Shown in pieces: positions 22,930-33,206 of a stretch of 64,000 nt of DNA. Made by a program: the position numbers and the translations under genes. This stretch comes from Candidatus Binatia bacterium. Its GTDB lineage: Bacteria > Desulfobacterota > Binatia > Bin18. Under the pieces are notes generated by a model, which saw only the letters and a list, made by a program, of their open reading frames with translations, was not told where the DNA came from and did not search any database. The DNA is taken from assembly GCA_022826945.1 (NCBI GenBank), contig JAJDTY010000073.1:186001-250000 (forward strand), read 5' to 3'. Within the stretch, counting starts at the first letter, position 1. Every line of letters starts with the position of its first letter.

Positions 22930-23661
22930 ATGAGACGGAGTGTAAGAACAGCCCCGCACCAACGGAGCCCGTGGCTCTGGAGTTGTGGCCTTCTTCTTGC
23001 TGCCTGCTGCGCCCTTCTGCTCTCGGCCTGCTCCTCTGCCACTCCGCTTGATCGATTGAAATCCCAGCTCGCCTCTGCGCCGGAATACGCTATTATTCTC
23101 AGCGATATGCGCGAGGAGGGCACGTTTTTCTCTTCGTATTTTCATCAATACCAGGTGGTCCAGGGGGAAAACTCCTGGACCACTGACTGGATGCAAGTCC
23201 CGGAATCCGTTTATCGCGCCAATGAGAATTTTCTGGGGATGACCCTCGCCTCCAAAACGCCTGACGGCGAGAACAATGTCCCTCATCCGCCCGGTTATGA
23301 TTACGTTGGCAATCCGCGCTACGGCTCGTGGCAGACGAATAGCAGCGGGATGTCGTTCTGGGCGTTCTACGGCCAATACGCGCTCATGCGCGACCTCCTC
23401 GGGATGGGCCGGGGGTCTATCTTTCGGAACGACTATGATGACTATCAACGCTCGCGCTCACAACGACGGCCGTACTATGGCCGGACGGGAAAAGAATACG
23501 GGACGCGGGGCACGGTCACCCAGCAGCAGAAACCGTCCTTTTTCGCCCGCCGCCGCGCCCGGGATGCCGCGCAACGCCAACGCTTTCAACAGAAATTCAA
23601 CAATCGCTTCGGACGGAGCAGCGTCCCGGTGCGCTCGCGTGGCTTTGGCTTTGGCAAATAA
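22930..23661 (+). CDS. Lipoprotein with Arg-rich tail, first gene of the envelope module
   Basis: A 243-residue predicted lipoprotein. The signal peptide LLLAACCALLLSAC places the lipidated cysteine in LSAC at about residue 34. The mature part has conserved-looking aromatic patches (TTDWMQVPESVY, PPGYDYVGNPRYG, SSGMSFWAFYGQYALMRD) and a C-terminal segment rich in Arg, Gln and Gly ending FGFGK. It is not a family I can name. Start ATG 22930 is preferred over an upstream TTG. The DUF350 gene starts after 16 bases, so it belongs to the DUF350/polyamine operon. Confidence 0.72.
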   Translation: MRRSVRTAPHQRSPWLWSCGLLLAACCALLLSACSSATPLDRLKSQLASAPEYAIILSDMREEGTFFSSYFHQYQVVQGENSWTTDWMQVPESVYRANENFLGMTLASKTPDGENNVPHPPGYDYVGNPRYGSWQTNSSGMSFWAFYGQYALMRDLLGMGRGSIFRNDYDDYQRSRSQRRPYYGRTGKEYGTRGTVTQQQKPSFFARRRARDAAQRQRFQQKFNNRFGRSSVPVRSRGFGFGK

Positions 23662-23677
23662 GCACAAGAGGTAGGTC

Positions 23678-24523
23678 ATGACCCTCGACGCCGTGATTCT
23701 GGCCAGTATCTATCTCCTGTCTGCCTATGTCTTGTTCTGGCTGGGGAAGCGCGTATTTGATTTTTTGCACCGCGATTTCCGCGTCCGAGAGGAATTGGTT
23801 GAGCGGAAAAACTCGGCCCTGGCGCTGGCCCTGGTAGGCTATTATCTCGGCGTCGTGTTTGCCATTGGCGGAGCCATTGTCGGTCCGTCGAGCGGCCTGG
23901 TTGACGATGTGCTGGATCTGTTCCTGTACGGGATATTGGCCATTATCCTGCTGAATATCTCGACGTTTGTCAGCGACCGCTTGATTCTCTTCCAGTTCAG
24001 CAACACCAAGGAGATCATTCAAGATCAAAATGCAGGAACGGGCGTCACCGCCGGGGGCGTATACGCGGCCACCGGTCTGATTCTGTTCGGCGCTATTTCC
24101 GGTGAAGGCGGCACGGTCTGGACGGCGATCGGTTTTTGGGGGCTGGGCCAACTGGCCCTGATTCTGACCGGACTCGTATACGAGTGGATCACGCCCTACA
24201 GCATTCATGACGAGATTGAAAAGGATAATGTTGCCGTTGGTGTCAGTTTTGCCGGAGCGCTGCTGAGCATGGGCAATATCCTGCGCTACGCGGTGAGTGG
24301 TGATTTTTATTCCTGGCAGGCAAATCTGCTGACCTTCTGCTCCCTGGCCGTGGTCGGCCTGGTGGCGTTGCCGATTATCCGCTGGGCGACGGACAAAGTG
24401 CTCTTACCGGGAACGACGATTACGGCCGAGTTGGTTGAGCACGAACAGCCGAATCTCGGGGCTGCCTACATCGAGATGTTCTCCTATATTAGTGCGTCTT
24501 TTCTCATCACTTGGTGTCTCTAG
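23678..24523 (+). CDS. DUF350 membrane protein (tandem domains)
   Basis: A 281-residue membrane protein with about eight helices that form two DUF350 units (roughly residues 1-130 and 145-275). Each has the GYYLGVVFAIGGAIVG- or GVSFAGALLSMGN-type kink. The E. coli homologue is YjfL, in a locus with a PspA-like protein and an ATP-grasp glutathionylspermidine-type enzyme. Here the ATP-grasp is replaced by a polyamine aminopropyltransferase, whose gene overlaps this one by about 30 bases. A role in envelope homeostasis linked to polyamines is inferred from the conserved neighbourhood. Confidence 0.85.
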   Translation: MTLDAVILASIYLLSAYVLFWLGKRVFDFLHRDFRVREELVERKNSALALALVGYYLGVVFAIGGAIVGPSSGLVDDVLDLFLYGILAIILLNISTFVSDRLILFQFSNTKEIIQDQNAGTGVTAGGVYAATGLILFGAISGEGGTVWTAIGFWGLGQLALILTGLVYEWITPYSIHDEIEKDNVAVGVSFAGALLSMGNILRYAVSGDFYSWQANLLTFCSLAVVGLVALPIIRWATDKVLLPGTTITAELVEHEQPNLGAAYIEMFSYISASFLITWCL

Positions 24524-26045
24524 TCTGCTGAAGCTGTGCCTGTTTGCCACAGGCTTGGCCGGCATAGTCGCCGAGTTTGTGCTGTGCACGCTTGCGACCT
24601 ACTTCCTCGGCAACGCGGTGTTGCAGTGGACGCTGATGATGTCCTTCATGCTGTTTGCCATGGGACTGGGCAGTCATCTGAGTCGCTATTGCAGTGCCCA
24701 TCTGCTGGACACCTTTACCGTTCTTGAGTTCGCGCTGTCCCTGTTGTGTGCCAGCGCCGCGGTCGCGGCCTACGTCCTGTCTCCTTTTCTCAACAACGTC
24801 GGGCTGGTGATTTACCCACTCGGCATCGCCATTGGCCTGTTGATCGGTATGGAGATTCCGCTCATTACGCGCGTCAACGCGGTCTATGAAGAACTTCGGG
24901 TCAACATCTCTTCGGTGATGGAGAAGGATTATTACGGAGCACTTATTGGAGGGTTGTTCTTTGCCTTTGTGGCCCTGCCGTATTTCGGACTGACCTACAC
25001 CCCGATAGCCCTTGGTGCCGTGAACTTCGGGGTTGCCTCGCTCCTGTTGTTTCGCTTTCGGTCTTTGCTGAGTGCCCCGCGACTGCTGAGCGGCCTCTGG
25101 GCCGGGGTTGGCGCCGGGCTTATCGGACTGTTTATCCTGGCGGAACCCATTCTCCTGTTTGGCGAGCAGGCCCTGTATAAGGACACCGTTATCCTGGCCA
25201 AGCAAACGCCCTACCAGCGGCTGGTGATGACGCGCTGGCGGAACGATTACTGGCTCTATATCAACGGTAACCAGCAGTTCAGCAGCTACGATGAAGAGCG
25301 CTATCACGAACCGCTCGTCCATCCGGCGATGGCGCTGGCCGGCAACCGCGCCGAGGTGCTCATTCTCGGCGGAGGCGATGGGTTGGCGCTACGGGAGGTG
25401 CTCAAATACTCCCAGGTACAATCCGTGACCCTGGTTGATCTCGACCCGGAGATGACCAGTCTGGCCGCCACCCATCCGGTCTTCCTGCAACTCAATGCAC
25501 ACGCCTTCGCCGACCCTCGGGTGTCGGTTGTCCATGCCGATGCCTTTTCCTTTCTCCAGGACACGTCGCATTTATTCGACGTGATTATTATTGATCTGCC
25601 CGACCCCAACTCCGCGGAACTGGCCCGGCTGTATTCGCTCAACTTCTACCGCCTGTGCAAGAGACATCTCAAACGGGGCGGCACTCTGGCCACGCAGGCG
25701 ACCAGCCCGTTTTTCAGCCGTCAAGCTTTTGTCTGCATTCAGAAAACGATGGCGGAAGCCGGCTTCAGCGTCCTGCCCTATCACAACCATATTCCCACGC
25801 TGGGTGAGTGGGGCTTTGTGTTAGGGGTGGATGGCGCGCTTCTTGAGGCTGCGGCTCTGAAGGAAACCGCACAAGGGTTGTCCTTCCAAGAGGTTGAGAC
25901 GCACTTTCTCAACCAGGAGGCGATGATTGCCATGGTACATTTTGGAAAGGGTGTTTTTCGGGACGCGGGCGAGATCGAGGTCAATCGGGAGAGTCGGCCC
26001 GTTTTACCGTCGTATTATCAGCAGGGCAGGTGGGAGGTGTATTAG
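24492..26045 (+). CDS. Membrane-bound polyamine aminopropyltransferase
   Basis: About 517 residues: an N-terminal membrane domain of six to eight helices (residues 10-225) and a C-terminal spermidine-synthase-type Rossmann domain. The latter has the SAM site GGGDG (residues 293-297), the acidic VDLDPEM, HADAFSF and IIDLPDPNSAEL, and a GEWGFVLG segment. It should transfer aminopropyl groups from decarboxylated SAM to a diamine or polyamine. GTG 24492 is preferred to the TTG at 24435 because it gives a clean membrane start; the frame overlaps the DUF350 gene. Its TAG overlaps the stop codon of the convergent DUF4178 gene. Confidence 0.88.
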   Translation: MRLFSSLGVSSLLKLCLFATGLAGIVAEFVLCTLATYFLGNAVLQWTLMMSFMLFAMGLGSHLSRYCSAHLLDTFTVLEFALSLLCASAAVAAYVLSPFLNNVGLVIYPLGIAIGLLIGMEIPLITRVNAVYEELRVNISSVMEKDYYGALIGGLFFAFVALPYFGLTYTPIALGAVNFGVASLLLFRFRSLLSAPRLLSGLWAGVGAGLIGLFILAEPILLFGEQALYKDTVILAKQTPYQRLVMTRWRNDYWLYINGNQQFSSYDEERYHEPLVHPAMALAGNRAEVLILGGGDGLALREVLKYSQVQSVTLVDLDPEMTSLAATHPVFLQLNAHAFADPRVSVVHADAFSFLQDTSHLFDVIIIDLPDPNSAELARLYSLNFYRLCKRHLKRGGTLATQATSPFFSRQAFVCIQKTMAEAGFSVLPYHNHIPTLGEWGFVLGVDGALLEAAALKETAQGLSFQEVETHFLNQEAMIAMVHFGKGVFRDAGEIEVNRESRPVLPSYYQQGRWEVY

Positions 26046-26611
26046 GATATGCTCTCCGACTGTTCCCGCGGCAGAATGTGGGAGAACTCGTACTCGTTGA
26101 CGTATTTACCTACAGAGGCTTCAAATTCGTCCTCATCCCACTGTTCGATGGTCAGGGTGTTGTCTTCCGAGGCGTCCATATAGTCCCAATAGATCATCTC
26201 ATCACCGGCAACCCGCCCGTTGGGATGATAATAGCCGGCGCCACTCTCGGCCAACCGAAAACGTATGCCTTGATATTCGATTTCCTCAGGCGGGTCGTCA
26301 TGCTGTCTGATATGCGCTCGCACACCTTGGCCCAGGGCCGAAAAGTCTATTTTGCGCGAGATATTCCATTCGACGCCATCGTCCTCTTCACGCTCAAGGA
26401 AGAATGCGTCGTCTCCGGCGTCGAGTTCCCACTCCTGCGTTTTGGTATCGTCGTCGTCAAAGGTATAGCTGCTCTGACTTTTGACCTGCCAGGTCTTGAG
26501 GTCATAGTCGACCAGATAGCCGACTTTCAGGTTCGAGAGGGTTAAATCGTTGAGCGGATCGAAGTCCGCCTGCTCGTCTTTTTTGCCAAAGAGTTTCTTC
26601 CAGAGAGACAT
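26042..26611 (-). CDS. DUF4178-like protein (YjfK-like position)
   Basis: A 189-residue acidic soluble protein. After a basic N-terminus (LWKKLFGKK) come GYLVDYDLKTWQV, the TQEWELDAGDDAFFLERE strand block and IEYQGIRFRLAESGAG, all consistent with a DUF4178/DUF2491-type beta-rich fold. The E. coli yjfK gene occupies the same place beside a PspA paralogue. Its TAA shares two bases with the TAG of the convergent aminopropyltransferase gene. It is the last gene of the minus-strand operon that also carries PspA, DUF2170, a K+ channel and rhodanese. Confidence 0.8.
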   Translation of the reverse strand: MSLWKKLFGKKDEQADFDPLNDLTLSNLKVGYLVDYDLKTWQVKSQSSYTFDDDDTKTQEWELDAGDDAFFLEREEDDGVEWNISRKIDFSALGQGVRAHIRQHDDPPEEIEYQGIRFRLAESGAGYYHPNGRVAGDEMIYWDYMDASEDNTLTIEQWDEDEFEASVGKYVNEYEFSHILPREQSESIS

Positions 26612-26686
26612 AGGGACTCCGCTGTTTACTCGGGAAATCTTTTTCCCAGAGGGACAGTCCTGGTCTGGGGCGTCGCGTCAACACGG

Positions 26687-26777
26687 AACCCGCCCCACCG
26701 CCGACGCGGCACCCCTCCGAGGAGGGGATAAGGGCTGCTCCCACCCTCGGAGGGGTAGCCGAAGGCCGGGGTGGGTT
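26687..26777. repeat. Nested inverted repeat between DUF4178 and pspA
   Basis: An outer pair, AACCCGCCCC (26687-26696) against GGGGTGGGTT (26768-26777), has one G-T pair. A perfect inner 12-bp pair joins ACCCCTCCGAGG (26711-26722) to CCTCGGAGGGGT (26745-26756). An extra stem CCCCTCC/GGAGGGG lies inside. It separates pspA from DUF4178 within the operon by about 220 bases. The AACCC-type arms resemble the hairpin at 6319. A dispersed repeat is likely; effects on mRNA stability are possible. Confidence 0.6.
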
Positions 26778-26830
26778 TTGCCTTGTCTTGCGTCATGAGC
26801 TTTGCCCTCTGAACCCTGGACACCTCAGGG

Positions 26831-27538
26831 CTATGCCGAAATCCCCATCTTGGCCTTGAGGGCGGCCAGGGAATCATTCGCCGTAGTATTGCCTTGGCTC
26901 AGGGCCGCATCGATCTCGTTGTCCACGCTCTTATCAATATCGGCGACCTGGCCGTACGCCTGGGCCAAGGACTCGTCTTCTTCGACCTTGTTGCGCATCT
27001 TTTCCAGCATGGCGATCGTGCTGGAGGAGTCGATCTTGGCGAGCTGCTGGTTGATCTTCTTGGTCGAGGCTGCCGTGCGTGCCCGGGCCTTGAGGGTAAT
27101 GAGATCGTTCTCATATTTGGTGATCGTAGATTTCAGCTTTTCGATCTTGCCCTGCAACTGGTTGGCCATATTGTCCTGATTTTCCCAGTCTTTCAGTGCC
27201 TGAGTCGCCTTTTGACTGGCCTCTTCTTTCTTCTTCAGGGCTTCGGTCGCCAGGCGCTCGGCCTCGGCCTGATCCATCTCGCCACTCTGCATCTTCTGCA
27301 GCAGCAACATAGCCTTGCGTTCATACTCGGCCGTCAGAGACTTACTGCTATCCCCATCCTTTTTCAGGCGAATAGCCACACTCTTGACCTCGGCCAGACT
27401 GGTCATGCTGGCCTGAAGATCGTTCTTGAGGTCACGGATACCCTGCTCGGTCATACGAATCGGGTCTTCCATATTATCAAGAACGGCGTGGGCTTCGGAT
27501 TGTCCGATTTTGAATAAGCGTTGAAAAAAACCTGCCAT
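26831..27538 (-). CDS. pspA: PspA/IM30 family protein
   Basis: A 235-residue PspA/IM30/Vipp1 ESCRT-III-like protein. The N-terminal amphipathic helix (AGFFQRLFKIGQSEAHAVLD) and the ME-DPIRMTEQGIRDLKNDL segment are followed by long coiled coil to about residue 190. PspA-like proteins oligomerise on damaged inner membrane and limit proton leak. It is closer in context to E. coli YjfJ than to the classical pspABC operon: no pspB, pspC or pspF gene is seen. The DUF2170 gene lies 20 bases upstream. ATG 27538 has a GGAGGAG ribosome site. Confidence 0.9.
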   Translation of the reverse strand: MAGFFQRLFKIGQSEAHAVLDNMEDPIRMTEQGIRDLKNDLQASMTSLAEVKSVAIRLKKDGDSSKSLTAEYERKAMLLLQKMQSGEMDQAEAERLATEALKKKEEASQKATQALKDWENQDNMANQLQGKIEKLKSTITKYENDLITLKARARTAASTKKINQQLAKIDSSSTIAMLEKMRNKVEEDESLAQAYGQVADIDKSVDNEIDAALSQGNTTANDSLAALKAKMGISA

Positions 27539-27558
27539 AGTCTGCTCCTCCAGAGTGA

Positions 27559-27957
27559 TTAGTGCGTGGTATAGGAGAGTAATTCTCCCGCATTCTCGGC
27601 CAGGGCCAGACTGAGCGCCTCAATCGAGCCCTCCAGTTCATTGCTGTCCAGATTCTCGATGCGCAGCGTGTCCCGGAAGAGGATGGTCTGCGTCTCTTCG
27701 TCCAACACAAAGGCACCGTGCACCAGCAGCCGGTTCATTTGCAGCAAACGCCGAAATAAATTCCCCGGCTCCTGCGGAATGGGCATGATGACCTGTTCCA
27801 GCACAAGCAGAGGGTCTTCGCAGTCAACGATGAGGTTGTTGATGCCGCTGTCCTCGTCATCGACGATAAACAATTCCTGGCCTTCGTCCTCTTGGGTAAT
27901 CGCATAGCCTAAATCAAGCAGCAGCGATTTTACTTTCTCAAAATACTCTGACGGCAT
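27559..27957 (-). CDS. DUF2170 protein (YjfI-like)
   Basis: A 132-residue soluble protein with the DUF2170 pattern LFRRLLQMNRLLVHGAFVL followed by a helix-rich C-terminus (GSIEALSLALAENAGE). E. coli YjfI is of similar length and also sits beside the PspA paralogue YjfJ. The fold is YbjN/chaperone-like in related families, so a partner-binding role is plausible; function is not established. ATG 27957 has a GGAGGAAG ribosome site. It lies 18 bases downstream of the K+ channel gene. Confidence 0.83.
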   Translation of the reverse strand: MPSEYFEKVKSLLLDLGYAITQEDEGQELFIVDDEDSGINNLIVDCEDPLLVLEQVIMPIPQEPGNLFRRLLQMNRLLVHGAFVLDEETQTILFRDTLRIENLDSNELEGSIEALSLALAENAGELLSYTTH

Positions 27958-27975
27958 ACGTCGCTTCCTCCACAC

Positions 27976-29004
27976 TTATCCCTGTTTGGGACGTTCCTGT
28001 CCGATAACGATGAGTTGATCTTCTGCCTGGATTATATAGTCGCTCGGCGGGTTTGCAAGAAACCTTGCCTGTGCCTGGCTTTCTACGGCGACAAGCAGGA
28101 GGTTCTGTTCTCTTTTCAGTTCGGTCAGGGCGTCTACAAAAGAACGATCAACACAGGTCTGCGGCACGGAAATGGTGTACAGCGCGCTCCCGAAGCGGTT
28201 GCTGACGAGTTCGTTAATCAGCAGGGGCACGCCCCGGTTCAAGGCAGCCTGGACAAGCAAGTTGGTGCTCATTGCCCCAGTGACGATAACCTCATCTGCC
28301 TTTGCCCGCTTGCCGTGGGCAATGTTTTGCTGGTCCAGCAGTTCGACGCAAGTATGCAGGCCAGGGCAGGTGGTTTTGATGGTGAGCGTATCCAGGATTG
28401 TCTTGGCATCCCGCGTATGGACCTCTCCCTGTTCATCGGCCAGTACAATGGCGACTTCTGCTTCTTGGGCATTGGCTCGTGCCAGGGTTTCCGGGCTGAC
28501 GACACCGCTGACAAATTGGACCTGTTCACCGTCCAAAGGATTCTCCGGTAAGTCGGCGATCAACACAATCGAACGGTTCCGGGCTTTTTCGTCGGCCCTG
28601 ACCTCTTCAATGATTTCCCTGGCCTTATAATTCCAGCCGCACAGGACAATATGTCCCGTACTTGAGAGCGGTTTCATCCCTTTTCCCTCCTGCCGCCGGT
28701 TTTCAACAAAGGTGCTGGCCAAGGTGGCCGTCAGCATACCCAAAAACCCGATGCCGAACAGCATCAGCAAAATGCCGACGATCCGGCCTCCCAACGAGGT
28801 TGGGTAGATATCACCATAGCCGACTGTGGTGACCGTCACGAGTGTCCACCACACCGCGTCCACTACGGATAACTGCGGCTCAAAAAACGAAATCCCCAAG
28901 ACCCCACTGGCGGCGATGACAACCAGCACCAAGAGAACCACGTCCAAATGCTCTTTCCGCATTTGGTGGGCGAATCGTCTCAAAAGGACCAGGATCGTGG
29001 GCAT
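27976..29004 (-). CDS. Two-TM potassium channel with RCK domain
   Basis: A 342-residue channel subunit. TM1 is at about residues 20-38, the selectivity filter TVGYGD at 60-65, and TM2 at about 75-95. The RCK/TrkA-N domain begins GHIVLCGWNYKA (residue 117 on), and a TrkA-C-like tail ends LIVIGQERP. It resembles MthK/GsuK-type channels gated by ligands or NAD(H). In this operon it sits between rhodanese (9 bases upstream) and DUF2170, and may sense or relieve membrane stress together with PspA. That coupling is inferred from gene order. Confidence 0.9.
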   Translation of the reverse strand: MPTILVLLRRFAHQMRKEHLDVVLLVLVVIAASGVLGISFFEPQLSVVDAVWWTLVTVTTVGYGDIYPTSLGGRIVGILLMLFGIGFLGMLTATLASTFVENRRQEGKGMKPLSSTGHIVLCGWNYKAREIIEEVRADEKARNRSIVLIADLPENPLDGEQVQFVSGVVSPETLARANAQEAEVAIVLADEQGEVHTRDAKTILDTLTIKTTCPGLHTCVELLDQQNIAHGKRAKADEVIVTGAMSTNLLVQAALNRGVPLLINELVSNRFGSALYTISVPQTCVDRSFVDALTELKREQNLLLVAVESQAQARFLANPPSDYIIQAEDQLIVIGQERPKQG

Positions 29005-29013
29005 GGGGACGGA

Positions 29014-29415
29014 TTATGACTTGTCTGGTTTTTCCACGGGCAGACCGGCCTCGGCCCAGCCGTTAAAGCCGACTTCCAGATGCGCAATATCGGGAAAACC
29101 CATATCTTGTAAAGCATCGGCAGCCAGCGCGGACCGGCCTCCCGCGGCGCAGTACACGACAATGCGTTTTTCGGGATCAACCTTTCCGGTGCAATACTGG
29201 GAGGACGGATCGAGCCAGAATTCCAGCATGCCGCGTGGTACATGCATGGCGCTCGGAATCCAGCCCAGCTTTTGCCGTTCACGCACATCTCGAATGTCAA
29301 GAAGCTGCGTCTCTCCGGACTCCAATTCTTGTTGTAACTGTCCCACGGACAGGTTCTCAATACGCGTCTTTGCCTCCTCCACCATCTGCTCCGCCGTTTT
29401 CTTGAGTTTAAACAT
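29014..29415 (-). CDS. Rhodanese-domain protein
   Basis: A 133-residue single-domain rhodanese. The helix-rich N-terminus leads into LLDIRDVRERQKLGWIPSAMHV, and the active-site loop is YCAAGGRS with Cys89. It likely carries persulfide sulfur. ATG 29415 has an AAAGGACC ribosome site; a longer upstream frame overlaps the mobile element at 29461 and is rejected. First gene of the minus-strand operon with the K+ channel, DUF2170, PspA and DUF4178. Confidence 0.88.
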   Translation of the reverse strand: MFKLKKTAEQMVEEAKTRIENLSVGQLQQELESGETQLLDIRDVRERQKLGWIPSAMHVPRGMLEFWLDPSSQYCTGKVDPEKRIVVYCAAGGRSALAADALQDMGFPDIAHLEVGFNGWAEAGLPVEKPDKS

Positions 29416-29460
29416 ACTGGTCCTTTCTGCTGCATCATCCGTTGCAATGCTAGAAGGTTT

Positions 29461-29864
29461 GGAAATTATAGCACGAAGGCACACGCACTACCGTTCTCGG
29501 CACCTGAAGTACCGCACGGGATATTCCCACCCGTGGGAGGACTCACAACCAGTCCTTGGTTCAAGATATTCAGCGCCGCATTCCAGTCCCGGTCAATGGA
29601 TAACCCACAGGCCGGACACATATGCGACTGATCGGATAGGGTTTTTGTCACTCGTTCCCCACATCGGCTACAGTCTTGCGACGTATGTTTCGGATCAACC
29701 TTTCGCACCCACCCACCAGCACTTGCAGCCTTATACAGCGAACGTTGCTGTTCGAGAAATGCCGTGAGCCGCGTATGAACAGCAGCACGCAGTTTTGCCG
29801 TGTAGGTGTACGTGCGATACATCTGACCTAACCCTACACCCTGTTACTTTGCACTATAATTCCC
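29461..29864 (-). mobile_element. TIR-bounded miniature element A with tnpB remnant
   Basis: A 404-bp element. The left end reads GGAAATTATAGC and the right end CTATAATTCCC, which form imperfect terminal inverted repeats of about 22 bp. It is flanked by GAAGGTTT (29453-29460) and AAAGGTTT (29865-29872), a probable 8-bp target duplication with one change. The interior carries the first residues and the zinc-ribbon C-terminus of a TnpB-like protein on the minus strand. A second, shorter copy lies at 50105-50367. Confidence 0.75.
29466..29822 (-). pseudogene. TnpB-like protein with internal deletion
   Basis: A 118-codon frame. The first 10-15 residues (YRTYTYTAKLR) fit a tnpB N-terminus. It then jumps to the C-terminal part: YKAASAGGWVRKVDPKHTSQ, the zinc ribbon CSRCG...CPACG and RDWNAALNIL. 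A complete TnpB has about 370-400 residues, so the RuvC and helical domains are missing. It lies within the TIR element A and ends a few bases from its left TIR. It may be translated, but cannot be a nuclease. Confidence 0.7.
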
Positions 29865-30366: not shown

Positions 30367-31668
30367 ATGAACTGGATTTGGTTCAGCTTGATTGTCGGTT
30401 CTGTTGTGACTGCTGCCTTTACCGGCAAGATGGCCGAGGTGACTGCCGCCTCAATAGATTCCGCCAAATCCGCGGTGACGCTGGCCATCGGCCTGGTCGG
30501 CGTGATGGCATTCTGGCTGGGCATGCTGCGCATTGTGCAAGTCGGCGGGTTTCTGCACACCCTGGCGCGCTGGCTCCGTCCTCTCATGGTGCGCTTGTTC
30601 CCCGACGTTCCGGCCGACCACCCCGCTCTGAGCGCCATGATTATGAATATCGCCTCCAATATGCTGGGTCTGGGCAACGCGGCCACACCCTTCGGGATTA
30701 AGGCCATGCAGGAGCTTGATAGCCTCAATCCGCACAAAGGTACGGCAACCAACGCCATGGTCTTATTCCTGGCCATCAATACCTCGAATGTTGCCCTGGC
30801 CCCCCTTGGCGTGATTGCGCTGAGGGCGTCGATAGGGTCAGAAAATGCCGCCGGCATTTGGTTGCCCACCCTGCTGGCCACCTCATTCTCGACCTGCGTT
30901 GGTATTCTCGCGGCGAAGCTCTGGCAGAGGCTGCCCGTATTCAGCATGGGCGACCGAACCGCTGAGCAGGAAGAAAATATCTCTGAGGTCGGCTTACCGG
31001 ATGAGGAAACGCTGGGCACCGAGCAGCCGACCTCCCGACCGGGCTGTCTGCTGGCCATAGCATCTGTTGGAGCGATTGGCGTCGCCTTTCTCCTATTCCT
31101 GCAATCCGGCTTGAGCAGCGGTCAGACCTTTGGGCCATTGCTGCGTAACGCCATATCGGGCTGGCTTCTGCCGGTGCTGATCGTGGTGATGCTGGGCTAC
31201 GGCATTGCCAAAAGAGTGGCCGTATATGATGCCATGATCGAAGGGGCAAAAGAGGGCTTTCAGGTTGCCCTCAGGATCATTCCGTTTCTTGTCGCTATTT
31301 TGGTTGCCGCTGGCATGTTTCGGGCCTCGGGTTTATTGGATGTGCTGATCGCCGGCGTCCAGCCTGTTCTGAGCCTTATCGGATTTCCCGCCGAGGCATT
31401 GCCGATGGCTATCCTGCGGCCCCTATCCGGCTCTGGAGCCTACGCCATTATGGCTGAGATTCTGCAAGCCGAGGGGCCGGACAGTCTGGTCGGCTATCTC
31501 GTTTCTACGCTCCAGGGGAGCACGGAAACGACTTTCTACGTCCTGGCCGTGTATTTTGGTGCGGTTGGCGTGGTCCGTATTCGACACGCCTTAGTCGCCG
31601 GATTGACGGCGGATATCGCTGGAGTGATCGGCGCGGTCGTCGCCGTCCAGTGGCTGTTAATGGGATAA
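30367..31668 (+). CDS. Fused SpmA/SpmB-like nucleoside-recognition membrane protein
   Basis: A 433-residue membrane protein made of two Gate/nucleoside-recognition domains. The first (residues 1-200) contains NIASNMLGLGNAATPFGIKAM; the second starts around residue 240 and contains GSGAYAIMAEI and GSTETTFYVLAVYFG. B. subtilis has the halves as separate SpmA and SpmB. In non-sporulating bacteria such fused proteins are widespread; transport of a nucleoside- or peptide-like compound is suspected but unproved. Start ATG 30367 has a weak ribosome site. It converges with the amt gene. Confidence 0.85.
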   Translation: MNWIWFSLIVGSVVTAAFTGKMAEVTAASIDSAKSAVTLAIGLVGVMAFWLGMLRIVQVGGFLHTLARWLRPLMVRLFPDVPADHPALSAMIMNIASNMLGLGNAATPFGIKAMQELDSLNPHKGTATNAMVLFLAINTSNVALAPLGVIALRASIGSENAAGIWLPTLLATSFSTCVGILAAKLWQRLPVFSMGDRTAEQEENISEVGLPDEETLGTEQPTSRPGCLLAIASVGAIGVAFLLFLQSGLSSGQTFGPLLRNAISGWLLPVLIVVMLGYGIAKRVAVYDAMIEGAKEGFQVALRIIPFLVAILVAAGMFRASGLLDVLIAGVQPVLSLIGFPAEALPMAILRPLSGSGAYAIMAEILQAEGPDSLVGYLVSTLQGSTETTFYVLAVYFGAVGVVRIRHALVAGLTADIAGVIGAVVAVQWLLMG

Positions 31669-31682
31669 CGACCACTGGACGG
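31643..31682 (+). terminator. Hairpin overlapping the stop of the SpmAB-like gene
   Basis: CCGTCCAGTGG (31643-31653) pairs perfectly with CCACTGGACGG (31672-31682) across an 18-base loop that contains the TAA stop. It lies in the convergent gap before amt. There is no T run, so it would act as a bidirectional weak terminator or as mRNA 3'-end protection. Confidence 0.45.
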
Positions 31683-31713
31683 GATTCGTACAGTAGATTC
31701 AGTCAGGCAGGGG

Positions 31714-33135
31714 TTATTCGGAAGATGGAGCCGTTTGGGCACCAGTACGGAGTTCCTCCACATCGTCCGGGTCGGGCATGACAACAAACTCCGGATACGC
31801 TTCGATCCCGAGTTCCATGGCATCCTGACCGACCTCTTCGACGCTACGCGAGACCCGGACCCCAATAGTCTTTTCCAGCACCAGCCATACTCCCCACGAC
31901 GTCGCGAAGGCAAACACCCCTATCGCCAACACCCCGAGGAGTTGTACGCCGATATCGCCGCCTGCCGCGATGCAGACTGCCAGCGTTCCCCAGACGCCGG
32001 CGAACAGATGGGCTGGAATCGCGCCGACCACATCGTCCAGCTTCATATTCTCCAGTATCCTCATGCCGCCCAGACACACCACCCCGCCAATCGCGCCGAT
32101 GATGACCGCCCAATACGGCTTCACAATATCCGGTCCCGCAGTAATAGAGACGAGGCCGGCAATCGCACCGTTGAGAACGGCAAGCAGATCGACCCGTCCG
32201 AGTAAAGGTCGTGAGACGCATAAGGCGGCCACGACTCCCGCGGCGGCCGCCAGGTTCGTGTTGGCAAGCACATTACTCATGGCCACAGCATCAACCACGC
32301 CACCGAGGGCGAGTTGCGAGCCTCCGTTAAAGCCGAGCCAGCCAAACCACAGAATGAGCACGCCTAAGGTCACGAACGGGACGTTCGAGGGAGGCGTGGG
32401 TTTGACGCTGCCGTCGGGTCGGAACTTTCCCATTCGCGGCCCCACGACCATGGCGCCGGCCAACGCGGCCCAGCCGCCGGTCGAATGGACGATGGTGGAG
32501 CCGGCAAAGTCCTGAAACCCCATTTCATTGAGCCAGCCCCCACCCCAGGTCCAGGCTCCAATAATGGGATAGATAATTGCCGTCAAAACGGTGGTGAAGG
32601 CGAGAAACGACCACAGCCTGACCCGTTCGGCCAGGGTGCCGGATACAATCGAGGCGGCAGTCGCGACAAAGACCATCTGAAAAAACCAGTCCGACATGAC
32701 GGCGTAGCCGTTGGCGACGACCGCGGCCAGGGCCTCCGTCTGATCGGACAACAGGGCCAGTTCATCGGCTGAAGGACCGTAGAGGAGGGTCACCGAGCCG
32801 ACCCAGGATCCGACATCGACGTACATCAGGTTGTAGCCGATGAAGTAATAGGCCAGTCCGGCGACCGAGTACAGCCCGATGTTCTTGAGACAGATCACAG
32901 AAGCGTTCTTCGTGCGTACCGAACCGGACTCCAGCATGGTGAAGCCCGCGCACATCCACATCACCAGCGCTCCCCAGATGAGAAACGAGAAGGTGTTCAG
33001 AACAAACTGTGACTCTTCATCCACGGCCGCCTGCGCAGCATCAGCCGGTAACAGGAGGCCGACCGCCACGAGCAACGCTCCTGTGCTCACGACACTCCGA
33101 CCGGACCTCCCTCGTCCATCTCTGCCTCTGTTCAT
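31714..33135 (-). CDS. amt: Ammonium transporter (Amt/Rh family)
   Basis: A 473-residue Amt protein with a signal-peptide-like N-terminus, then eleven helices. The family marks are FWGWLGFNGGSQLA-type core, the STGGWAALAGAMVVGPR segment with the pore-lining first His of the twin-His pair (HSTGG), and DVVGAIPAHLFAGVWGT with the second. The C-terminus (GVRVSRSVEEVGQDAMELG) is the usual helix that meets GlnK; no glnK gene is adjacent. Start ATG 33135 is preferred to a TTG twelve bases earlier. It converges on the SpmAB-like gene. Confidence 0.93.
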   Translation of the reverse strand: MNRGRDGRGRSGRSVVSTGALLVAVGLLLPADAAQAAVDEESQFVLNTFSFLIWGALVMWMCAGFTMLESGSVRTKNASVICLKNIGLYSVAGLAYYFIGYNLMYVDVGSWVGSVTLLYGPSADELALLSDQTEALAAVVANGYAVMSDWFFQMVFVATAASIVSGTLAERVRLWSFLAFTTVLTAIIYPIIGAWTWGGGWLNEMGFQDFAGSTIVHSTGGWAALAGAMVVGPRMGKFRPDGSVKPTPPSNVPFVTLGVLILWFGWLGFNGGSQLALGGVVDAVAMSNVLANTNLAAAAGVVAALCVSRPLLGRVDLLAVLNGAIAGLVSITAGPDIVKPYWAVIIGAIGGVVCLGGMRILENMKLDDVVGAIPAHLFAGVWGTLAVCIAAGGDIGVQLLGVLAIGVFAFATSWGVWLVLEKTIGVRVSRSVEEVGQDAMELGIEAYPEFVVMPDPDDVEELRTGAQTAPSSE

Positions 33136-33206
33136 GCTCGCCCCCAATCCTGTTTCGACTCACTGGCTGCCACAAGAACTACGAACAAGGGTAAACGTGT
33201 CCAGCT

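What the first reader, a model, noticed from the sequence alone, without database searches (positions are those of the whole stretch)
22930..29415. Convergent envelope-stress module linking polyamine synthesis, PspA and a K+ channel
Seen: plus-strand lipoprotein, DUF350 and membrane aminopropyltransferase genes meet minus-strand rhodanese, RCK-type K+ channel, DUF2170, PspA and DUF4178 genes at stop codons that overlap by two bases. Known: E. coli yjfI-yjfL-like loci join DUF2170, PspA paralogue, DUF2491 and DUF350 with an ATP-grasp glutathionylspermidine-type enzyme. Here a membrane polyamine transferase replaces that enzyme and a K+ channel and rhodanese are added. The unit may couple polyamine or thiol-polyamine status and ion flux to membrane repair. 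Related layouts may already be described.
Basis: partly seen in the sequence, partly recalled or inferred. Interest (0 to 1): 0.7.

Follow-up and report, generated by a model that had tools for sequence, protein, structure and literature searches.

The report
Two-part envelope-stress cassette with potassium channel
A bacterial gene cluster combines a membrane-embedded aminopropyltransferase-like enzyme, a membrane-protecting PspA protein and a potassium channel; its core is already published, but the channel proves to be a regular partner and, in this genus, the enzyme persists without the gene thought to supply its substrate.

Summary
The window belongs to a Binatia MAG. Six of the eight genes match an operon type already described by Ravi et al. 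2024 (their second CesT/Tir-PspA group).

New here: (1) The K+ channel (MthK-like) is a regular partner. A channel profile gave one strong hit in 40 of 56 genomes carrying the enzyme. In 16 genomes not used to build the profile, 14 of those channels sat directly upstream of CesT-PspA-DUF4178. (2) The unit is two separable cassettes, lipoprotein-DUF350-SpeE and channel-CesT-PspA-DUF4178, found convergent, collinear or on separate contigs. The overlapping stop codons are incidental. (3) No SAM decarboxylase (SpeD) was detected in 7 of 7 genomes of this genus, although SpeE keeps every checked active-site residue and is under purifying selection. The five other Binatia genomes with this enzyme have SpeD within 2.5 kb. 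(4) The rhodanese is genus-specific.

Most likely mechanism (inferred): a membrane-bound transferase modifies an unknown envelope target while PspA, its chaperone-like partner and a ligand-gated channel respond at the inner face. Substrate, donor and channel ligand are unknown.

The parts
22930..23661 (+). lipoprotein, 243 aa, lipobox Cys34, conserved cationic C-terminal tail; cassette A gene 1
   Evidence: no Pfam or NCBIfam hit; in 70 of 81 SpeE loci; AlphaFold pLDDT 85, no PDB match at E<=0.001
23678..24523 (+). tandem DUF350 membrane protein, 281 aa; cassette A gene 2
   Evidence: PF03994 1.5e-53; in 73 of 81 SpeE loci; profile match to E. coli YjfL; AlphaFold pLDDT 93, no PDB match at E<=0.001
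24435..26045 (+). 7TM membrane domain fused to spermidine-synthase-like domain (start codon uncertain; conserved part begins about 24525); cassette A gene 3
   Evidence: NF002956 581 bits over cut-off 472; PF01564 4.5e-40; active-site columns retained
26042..26611 (-). DUF4178 protein with N-terminal aromatic/basic stretch; cassette B gene 4
   Evidence: PF13785 9.5e-26; N-terminal pattern seen in most relatives listed
26831..27538 (-). PspA/IM30 paralogue; cassette B gene 3
   Evidence: PF04012 9.4e-41; a second PspA beside a PspF-like activator lies elsewhere in the genome
27559..27957 (-). CesT/Tir-like protein, PF22550 (not DUF2170); cassette B gene 2
   Evidence: 7.3e-48; 51-67% identical across phyla
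27976..29004 (-). two-TM K+ channel with TVGYGD filter and RCK domain, MthK-like; cassette B gene 1
29014..29421 (-). single-domain rhodanese with active-site-like CAAGGRS loop; genus-specific addition
   Evidence: PF00581 5.1e-19; beside the channel in 7 of 7 genus genomes

Best explanation
This is a two-cassette envelope-protection system of the published CesT/Tir-PspA plus 7TM-spermidine-synthase type. Cassette A (lipoprotein, tandem DUF350, 7TM-SpeE) is inferred to carry out an aminopropyl-type transfer at the inner membrane onto a membrane-located acceptor rather than making free spermidine, with DUF350 and the lipoprotein handling the product or reporting across the envelope. Cassette B (MthK-like K+ channel, CesT-like partner, PspA, DUF4178, in some phyla also a J-domain protein) is inferred to be the inner-face arm: PspA coats damaged membrane, the CesT-like protein chaperones or holds PspA, DUF4178 docks through its N-terminal stretch, and the ligand-gated channel resets ion balance. 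Shown: gene identities, order, co-occurrence, separability, selection, conserved active site, absence of detectable SpeD in the genus. Inferred: the acceptor, the chemistry, the channel ligand, and every physical interaction.
For: Published operon type with the same six families (PMC11237479). The channel profile A2 gives one strong hit (323-522 bits, next best 250) in 40 of 56 SpeE genomes. In 16 genomes whose channel was not in the profile and lay outside the fetched SpeE locus, 14 channels head a channel-CesT-PspA-DUF4178 run. That four-gene order occurs in 24 loci plus L144; nine further loci have channel, J-domain, CesT, PspA. In Binatia the channel is in 9 of 12 genomes with 7TM-SpeE and 1 of 136 without (Fisher p 3e-11, not corrected for kinship). 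The membrane half of SpeE is as conserved as the enzyme half (70 of 225 versus 63 of 291 columns at >=93%), so it is probably more than an anchor. A separate PspF-PspA-type locus exists, so this PspA is a dedicated paralogue. E. coli yjfIJKL is linked to heat tolerance and P. aeruginosa BacA/BacB (DUF2170/PspA) to biofilm and osmotic shock (passages read).
Against: The channel is missing (no hit above 250 bits) in 16 of 56 SpeE genomes, among them all ten Latescibacterota and Gemmatimonadota genomes tested, which have SpeE with CesT-PspA; so it is common, not obligatory. G163 has cassette B without a detected 7TM-SpeE (81% complete). No shared regulatory motif was seen by eye upstream of the two converging operons. 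Missing SpeD in the genus weakens the aminopropyl chemistry. No expression, interaction or biochemical data exist for this genus in what I read.
Confidence: 0.5

Rival explanations
1. Ordinary polyamine (spermidine) synthesis that happens to lie beside stress genes: SpeE makes spermidine from putrescine and dcSAM.
For: Family name polyamine aminopropyltransferase; the genome has biosynthetic arginine decarboxylase beside a carbon-nitrogen hydrolase; SpeD is encoded in 38 of 50 other SpeE genomes (class 1: 35; class 2: 3).
Against: No SpeD in 7 of 7 genus genomes, two of them single-contig. The acceptor-side region reads IPTLGEWGF; the TYPSG form of ordinary spermidine synthases is recalled, and the solved relatives shown lack it too. 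Conserved 7TM half. Li et al. 2019 (recalled; not held) report that such fusions do not restore spermidine synthesis.
Confidence: 0.12
2. The 7TM-SpeE in this genus uses a donor other than SpeD-made dcSAM, for instance SAM itself (3-amino-3-carboxypropyl or methyl transfer), so the system is not polyamine-related here.
For: SpeD absent while the active site is intact: the checked columns are the same in 18 SpeD-less and 40 SpeD-bearing sequences; SpeE dN/dS 0.09.
Against: SpeD lies within 2.5 kb of SpeE in the five other Binatia genomes with the enzyme, which points to dcSAM; no residue change marks the SpeD-less set; an unrelated decarboxylase or uptake could supply dcSAM.
Confidence: 0.2
3. 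Two unrelated operons that meet by chance.
For: The overlap of stops and the gap length are not conserved within the genus; the two halves lie on different contigs in 13 of the 14 genomes with a separately fetched cassette B (contig lengths).
Against: The two halves co-occur across many phyla in three different layouts, which is evidence for linkage of function rather than chance.
Confidence: 0.06

Closest known systems
Ravi et al. 2024 (PMC11237479) second CesT/Tir-PspA group: 7TM-spermine synthase, 8TM DUF350, lipoprotein (Ctha_1186), DUF4178, CesT/Tir-PspA, e.g. Shewanella AAN56744-AAN56747
   Same: Six of the eight genes and their domain make-up (that the lipoprotein is Ctha_1186 is inferred from its place; no model for it was run)
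   Different: Here a K+ channel heads the PspA side and a rhodanese is added; the text read names a channel only for the third group; the two halves can be separate; no SpeD found in this genus
Third group of the same paper / E. coli yjfIJKLMC (DUF2170, PspA, DUF2491, DUF350, DUF1190, ATP-grasp)
   Same: PspA with a CesT/Tir-type partner, DUF350, a lipoprotein, and in some species a K+ channel
   Different: ATP-grasp ligase instead of 7TM-SpeE; single instead of tandem DUF350; DUF2170, DUF2491 and DUF1190 proteins of E. coli show no significant profile match to the window's CesT-like, DUF4178 and lipoprotein families
MFS-SpdSyn fusion / DUF350 / AdoMet decarboxylase clusters (Li et al. 2019, Biochem J; recalled, cited by Ravi et al.)
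   Same: Same enzyme family and DUF350 partner
   Different: SpeD not found in this genus
MthK calcium-gated K+ channel
   Same: Full-length match, two TM helices plus RCK (E 1.2e-20)
   Different: Of the recalled Ca2+ ligands D184, E210 and E212, the alignment keeps E210, replaces E212 by Leu and leaves D184 uncertain; the ligand may differ

Membership tests
Ravi group 2 operon (CesT/Tir-PspA with 7TM-SpeE) | CesT/Tir-like gene next to pspA | tested here: met
   PF22550 and PF04012 neighbours; both in 36 of 81 SpeE loci, many of which are cut by contig ends
Ravi group 2 operon (CesT/Tir-PspA with 7TM-SpeE) | spermine-synthase domain fused to N-terminal 7TM domain | tested here: met
   NF002956 over cut-off across residues 9-514
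Ravi group 2 operon (CesT/Tir-PspA with 7TM-SpeE) | 8TM DUF350, lipoprotein and DUF4178 in the same neighbourhood | tested here: met
   Two PF03994 stretches, lipobox, PF13785. That the lipoprotein is Ctha_1186 was not tested by a model
PspA/IM30 | PF04012 over its cut-off | tested here: met
   140 bits, cut-off 33.9
DUF2170 (PF09938) | match to PF09938 | tested here: not met
   No hit at E<=0.1; PF22550 instead; no significant match to YjfI
MthK-type K+ channel | two TM helices, TVGYGD filter, RCK domain | tested here: met
MthK-type K+ channel | Ca2+ gating site | tested here: inconclusive
   Alignment only; ligand positions recalled
SpeD-dependent aminopropyltransferase | SAM decarboxylase in the same genome | tested here: not met
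   PF02675 at E<=10 and PF01536 at E<=1: 0 of 7 genus genomes
SpeD-dependent aminopropyltransferase | use of dcSAM and a free polyamine acceptor | not testable with these tools
   Needs enzyme assay

The most novel reading that the evidence does not exclude
In this Binatia genus the membrane-embedded SpeE homologue works without SpeD, using SAM or another donor to modify a lipid or envelope protein. Together with a dedicated PspA, its chaperone-like partner and an RCK-gated K+ channel it would form a polyamine-independent membrane-modification and repair system.
Probability: 0.2. Interest if true: 0.75.

Novelty: new variant of a known kind. Interest (0 to 1): 0.5.

Why it matters
PspA systems protect membranes across life, and what PspA's polyamine-linked partners do is open. 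Here the K+ channel becomes a regular, testable partner, and the system resolves into two cassettes that can be deleted separately. The SpeD-less genus gives a natural test of what the 7TM-SpeE enzyme uses as donor.

Tried and rejected
Chance grouping: rejected by conservation. DUF2170 label: rejected. Homology of DUF4178 to DUF2491, and of the lipoprotein to DUF1190, suspected by eye: no significant profile match. Anti-phage defence: PADLOC gave only generic hits, SpeE to mad2 and PspA to JetC coiled coil. Fold of lipoprotein and DUF350: confident models but no PDB match at E<=0.001; second-look Z at most 4.6 and 7.0, which is uninformative. CesT-like profile against PDB sequences: no hit at E<=0.1. 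Shared regulatory motif upstream of the two operons: none seen by eye in genus alignments. Repeat copies of the GC-rich stretch between PspA and DUF4178: only its own copy in the window. Literature: searches (searches listed only the top 20 of 1,440 and of 35 papers); only Ravi et al. held PspA, DUF350 and spermidine synthase together. Absence from print of the channel as partner of the 7TM-SpeE group rests on those searches and on the passages read; Ravi's supplementary tables were not readable here.

Full report
WHAT IS THERE. The window lies in contig C17 of a 4.7 Mb Binatia MAG (the class is read from the titles of near-identical records). All eight genes of the finding are present at the stated places. 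Family searches give: lipoprotein with no family hit; tandem DUF350; NF002956 polyamine aminopropyltransferase with a membrane half, over its cut-off; DUF4178; PspA; PF22550 CesT_Tir_1; a two-TM K+ channel with RCK; rhodanese. The stop codons do overlap by two bases, but the spacing varies from -4 to 2845 nt within the genus.

IS IT REAL. In the genus (six or seven genomes per gene) every gene is under purifying selection, median dN/dS 0.04-0.12. A scan of genome contigs with SpeE kept the best 80 of 144 confirmed loci, from many phyla. With profiles built from the window genes, 81 non-duplicate loci with SpeE gave: lipoprotein 70, DUF350 73, DUF4178 46, PspA 36, CesT 36, channel 27, J-domain 14, SpeD 6, rhodanese-like 6. 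Many contigs end inside the region, so these are lower bounds.

THE CHANNEL. Profile A2, made from 21 locus-linked channels, was run on 56 SpeE genomes: 40 have one hit of 323 bits or more, the next best being 250. Sequences in the profile score high by construction. In 16 genomes the strong channel was not in the profile and lay outside the fetched SpeE locus; 14 of the 16 sit at the head of a channel-CesT-PspA-DUF4178 run and 2 stand without CesT or PspA nearby. For 13 of those 14 the contig length differs from that of the SpeE contig; in G054 both halves share one contig, about 8.6 kb apart. The four-gene order is present in 24 loci and in L144; nine loci have channel, J-domain, CesT, PspA. 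In Binatia the channel occurs in 9 of 12 genomes with the 7TM-SpeE and in 1 of 136 without; kinship inflates the significance, because the nine belong to two genera. Against this, 16 of 56 genomes lack a strong channel, including all ten Latescibacterota and Gemmatimonadota genomes tested. The channel aligns with MthK over its full length.

TWO CASSETTES. The halves occur convergent (24 of 81 loci), with DUF4178 and, where seen, other cassette-B genes on the SpeE strand (DUF4178 on that strand in 20 of 81 loci), or apart. The convergent layout is one of three and carries no special meaning.

THE MISSING SpeD. PF02675 found nothing in 7 of 7 genus genomes even at E<=10, nor did the class 2 model PF01536. 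G001 and G006 are single-contig genomes. The five other Binatia genomes with the 7TM-SpeE all have SpeD within 2.5 kb of it. In 50 genomes from other phyla 35 have PF02675 and 3 of the remaining 15 have PF01536, so 12 of 50 have neither; some of those may be incomplete. The SpeE active-site columns checked are the same in SpeD-less (18) and SpeD-bearing (40) sequences, apart from D/E and A/G exchanges and two single substitutions. The genome encodes biosynthetic arginine decarboxylase next to a carbon-nitrogen hydrolase, and its two other PF01564 hits are a 952-residue multi-TM protein and a weak 349-residue one; so an ordinary SpeD/SpeE spermidine route was not found.

MECHANISM. The conserved membrane half of SpeE (70 of 225 columns at 93% or more, against 63 of 291 in the enzyme half), the predicted lipoprotein and the inner-face proteins suggest modification of a membrane-located target coupled to PspA-based membrane protection and ion flux. 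Ravi et al. [quoted passage not shown] DUF4178 proteins mostly begin with an aromatic and basic stretch that may dock at the membrane (inference). The genome also has a second PspA beside a PspF-like activator, so the window's PspA is an extra, dedicated one. Donor, acceptor, channel ligand and all interactions are unproven.

KNOWN AND NEW. Known: the six-gene core (Ravi et al. 2024, passages read), the enzyme fusion and its DUF350 link (Li et al. 2019, recalled). From passages read: E. coli yjfIJKL was upregulated in heat-evolved strains (PMC12492005), and P. aeruginosa BacA/BacB bear on biofilm (PMC10948618). New within what I could search: the channel as a regular member of the 7TM-SpeE type, the separable cassettes, the J-domain partner in 14 loci, and a genus with an intact enzyme but no SpeD.

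Noticed in passing
L020 5070-7027 (G000 contig C65): Second PspA of the genome (229 aa) divergent from a 373 aa PspF-like AAA+ activator: looks like a classical Psp locus.
   Followed up: partly
window 29466-29822: C-terminal zinc-ribbon piece resembling TnpB/OrfB (seen by eye), just upstream of the rhodanese; the four other genus genomes aligned differ there.
   Followed up: partly
window 26650-26830: GC-rich, hairpin-like stretch between PspA and DUF4178; a 30-base piece occurs only once in the window.
   Followed up: partly
L060 10714-11106, L091 10715-11110, L090 11849-12247 and 11 other loci: Small J-domain protein (PF00226 in the three tested) near the CesT-like gene in 14 loci; no DnaJ or J-domain term in the main text of Ravi et al..
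   Followed up: yes
L145, L146, L147: Other Binatia genera carry a different layout: SpeD, then (in L145) a large protein with a zinc-ribbon-like start, DUF350, 7TM-SpeE, without CesT, PspA or channel.
   Followed up: partly
L085 2986-4041, L093 1256-2311: SpeD fused to a soluble spermidine-synthase domain (Pfam for L085; L093 by its equal length and SpeD hit), in the same locus as the 7TM-SpeE.
   Followed up: partly
L115 895-3753: 952 aa protein with two membrane halves and a spermidine-synthase-like domain followed by what look like TPR repeats; function unknown.
   Followed up: no
window 30367-33147: Nucleoside-recognition Gate protein (PF07670) and, by eye, an ammonium transporter next to the module; ordinary neighbours.
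   Followed up: no
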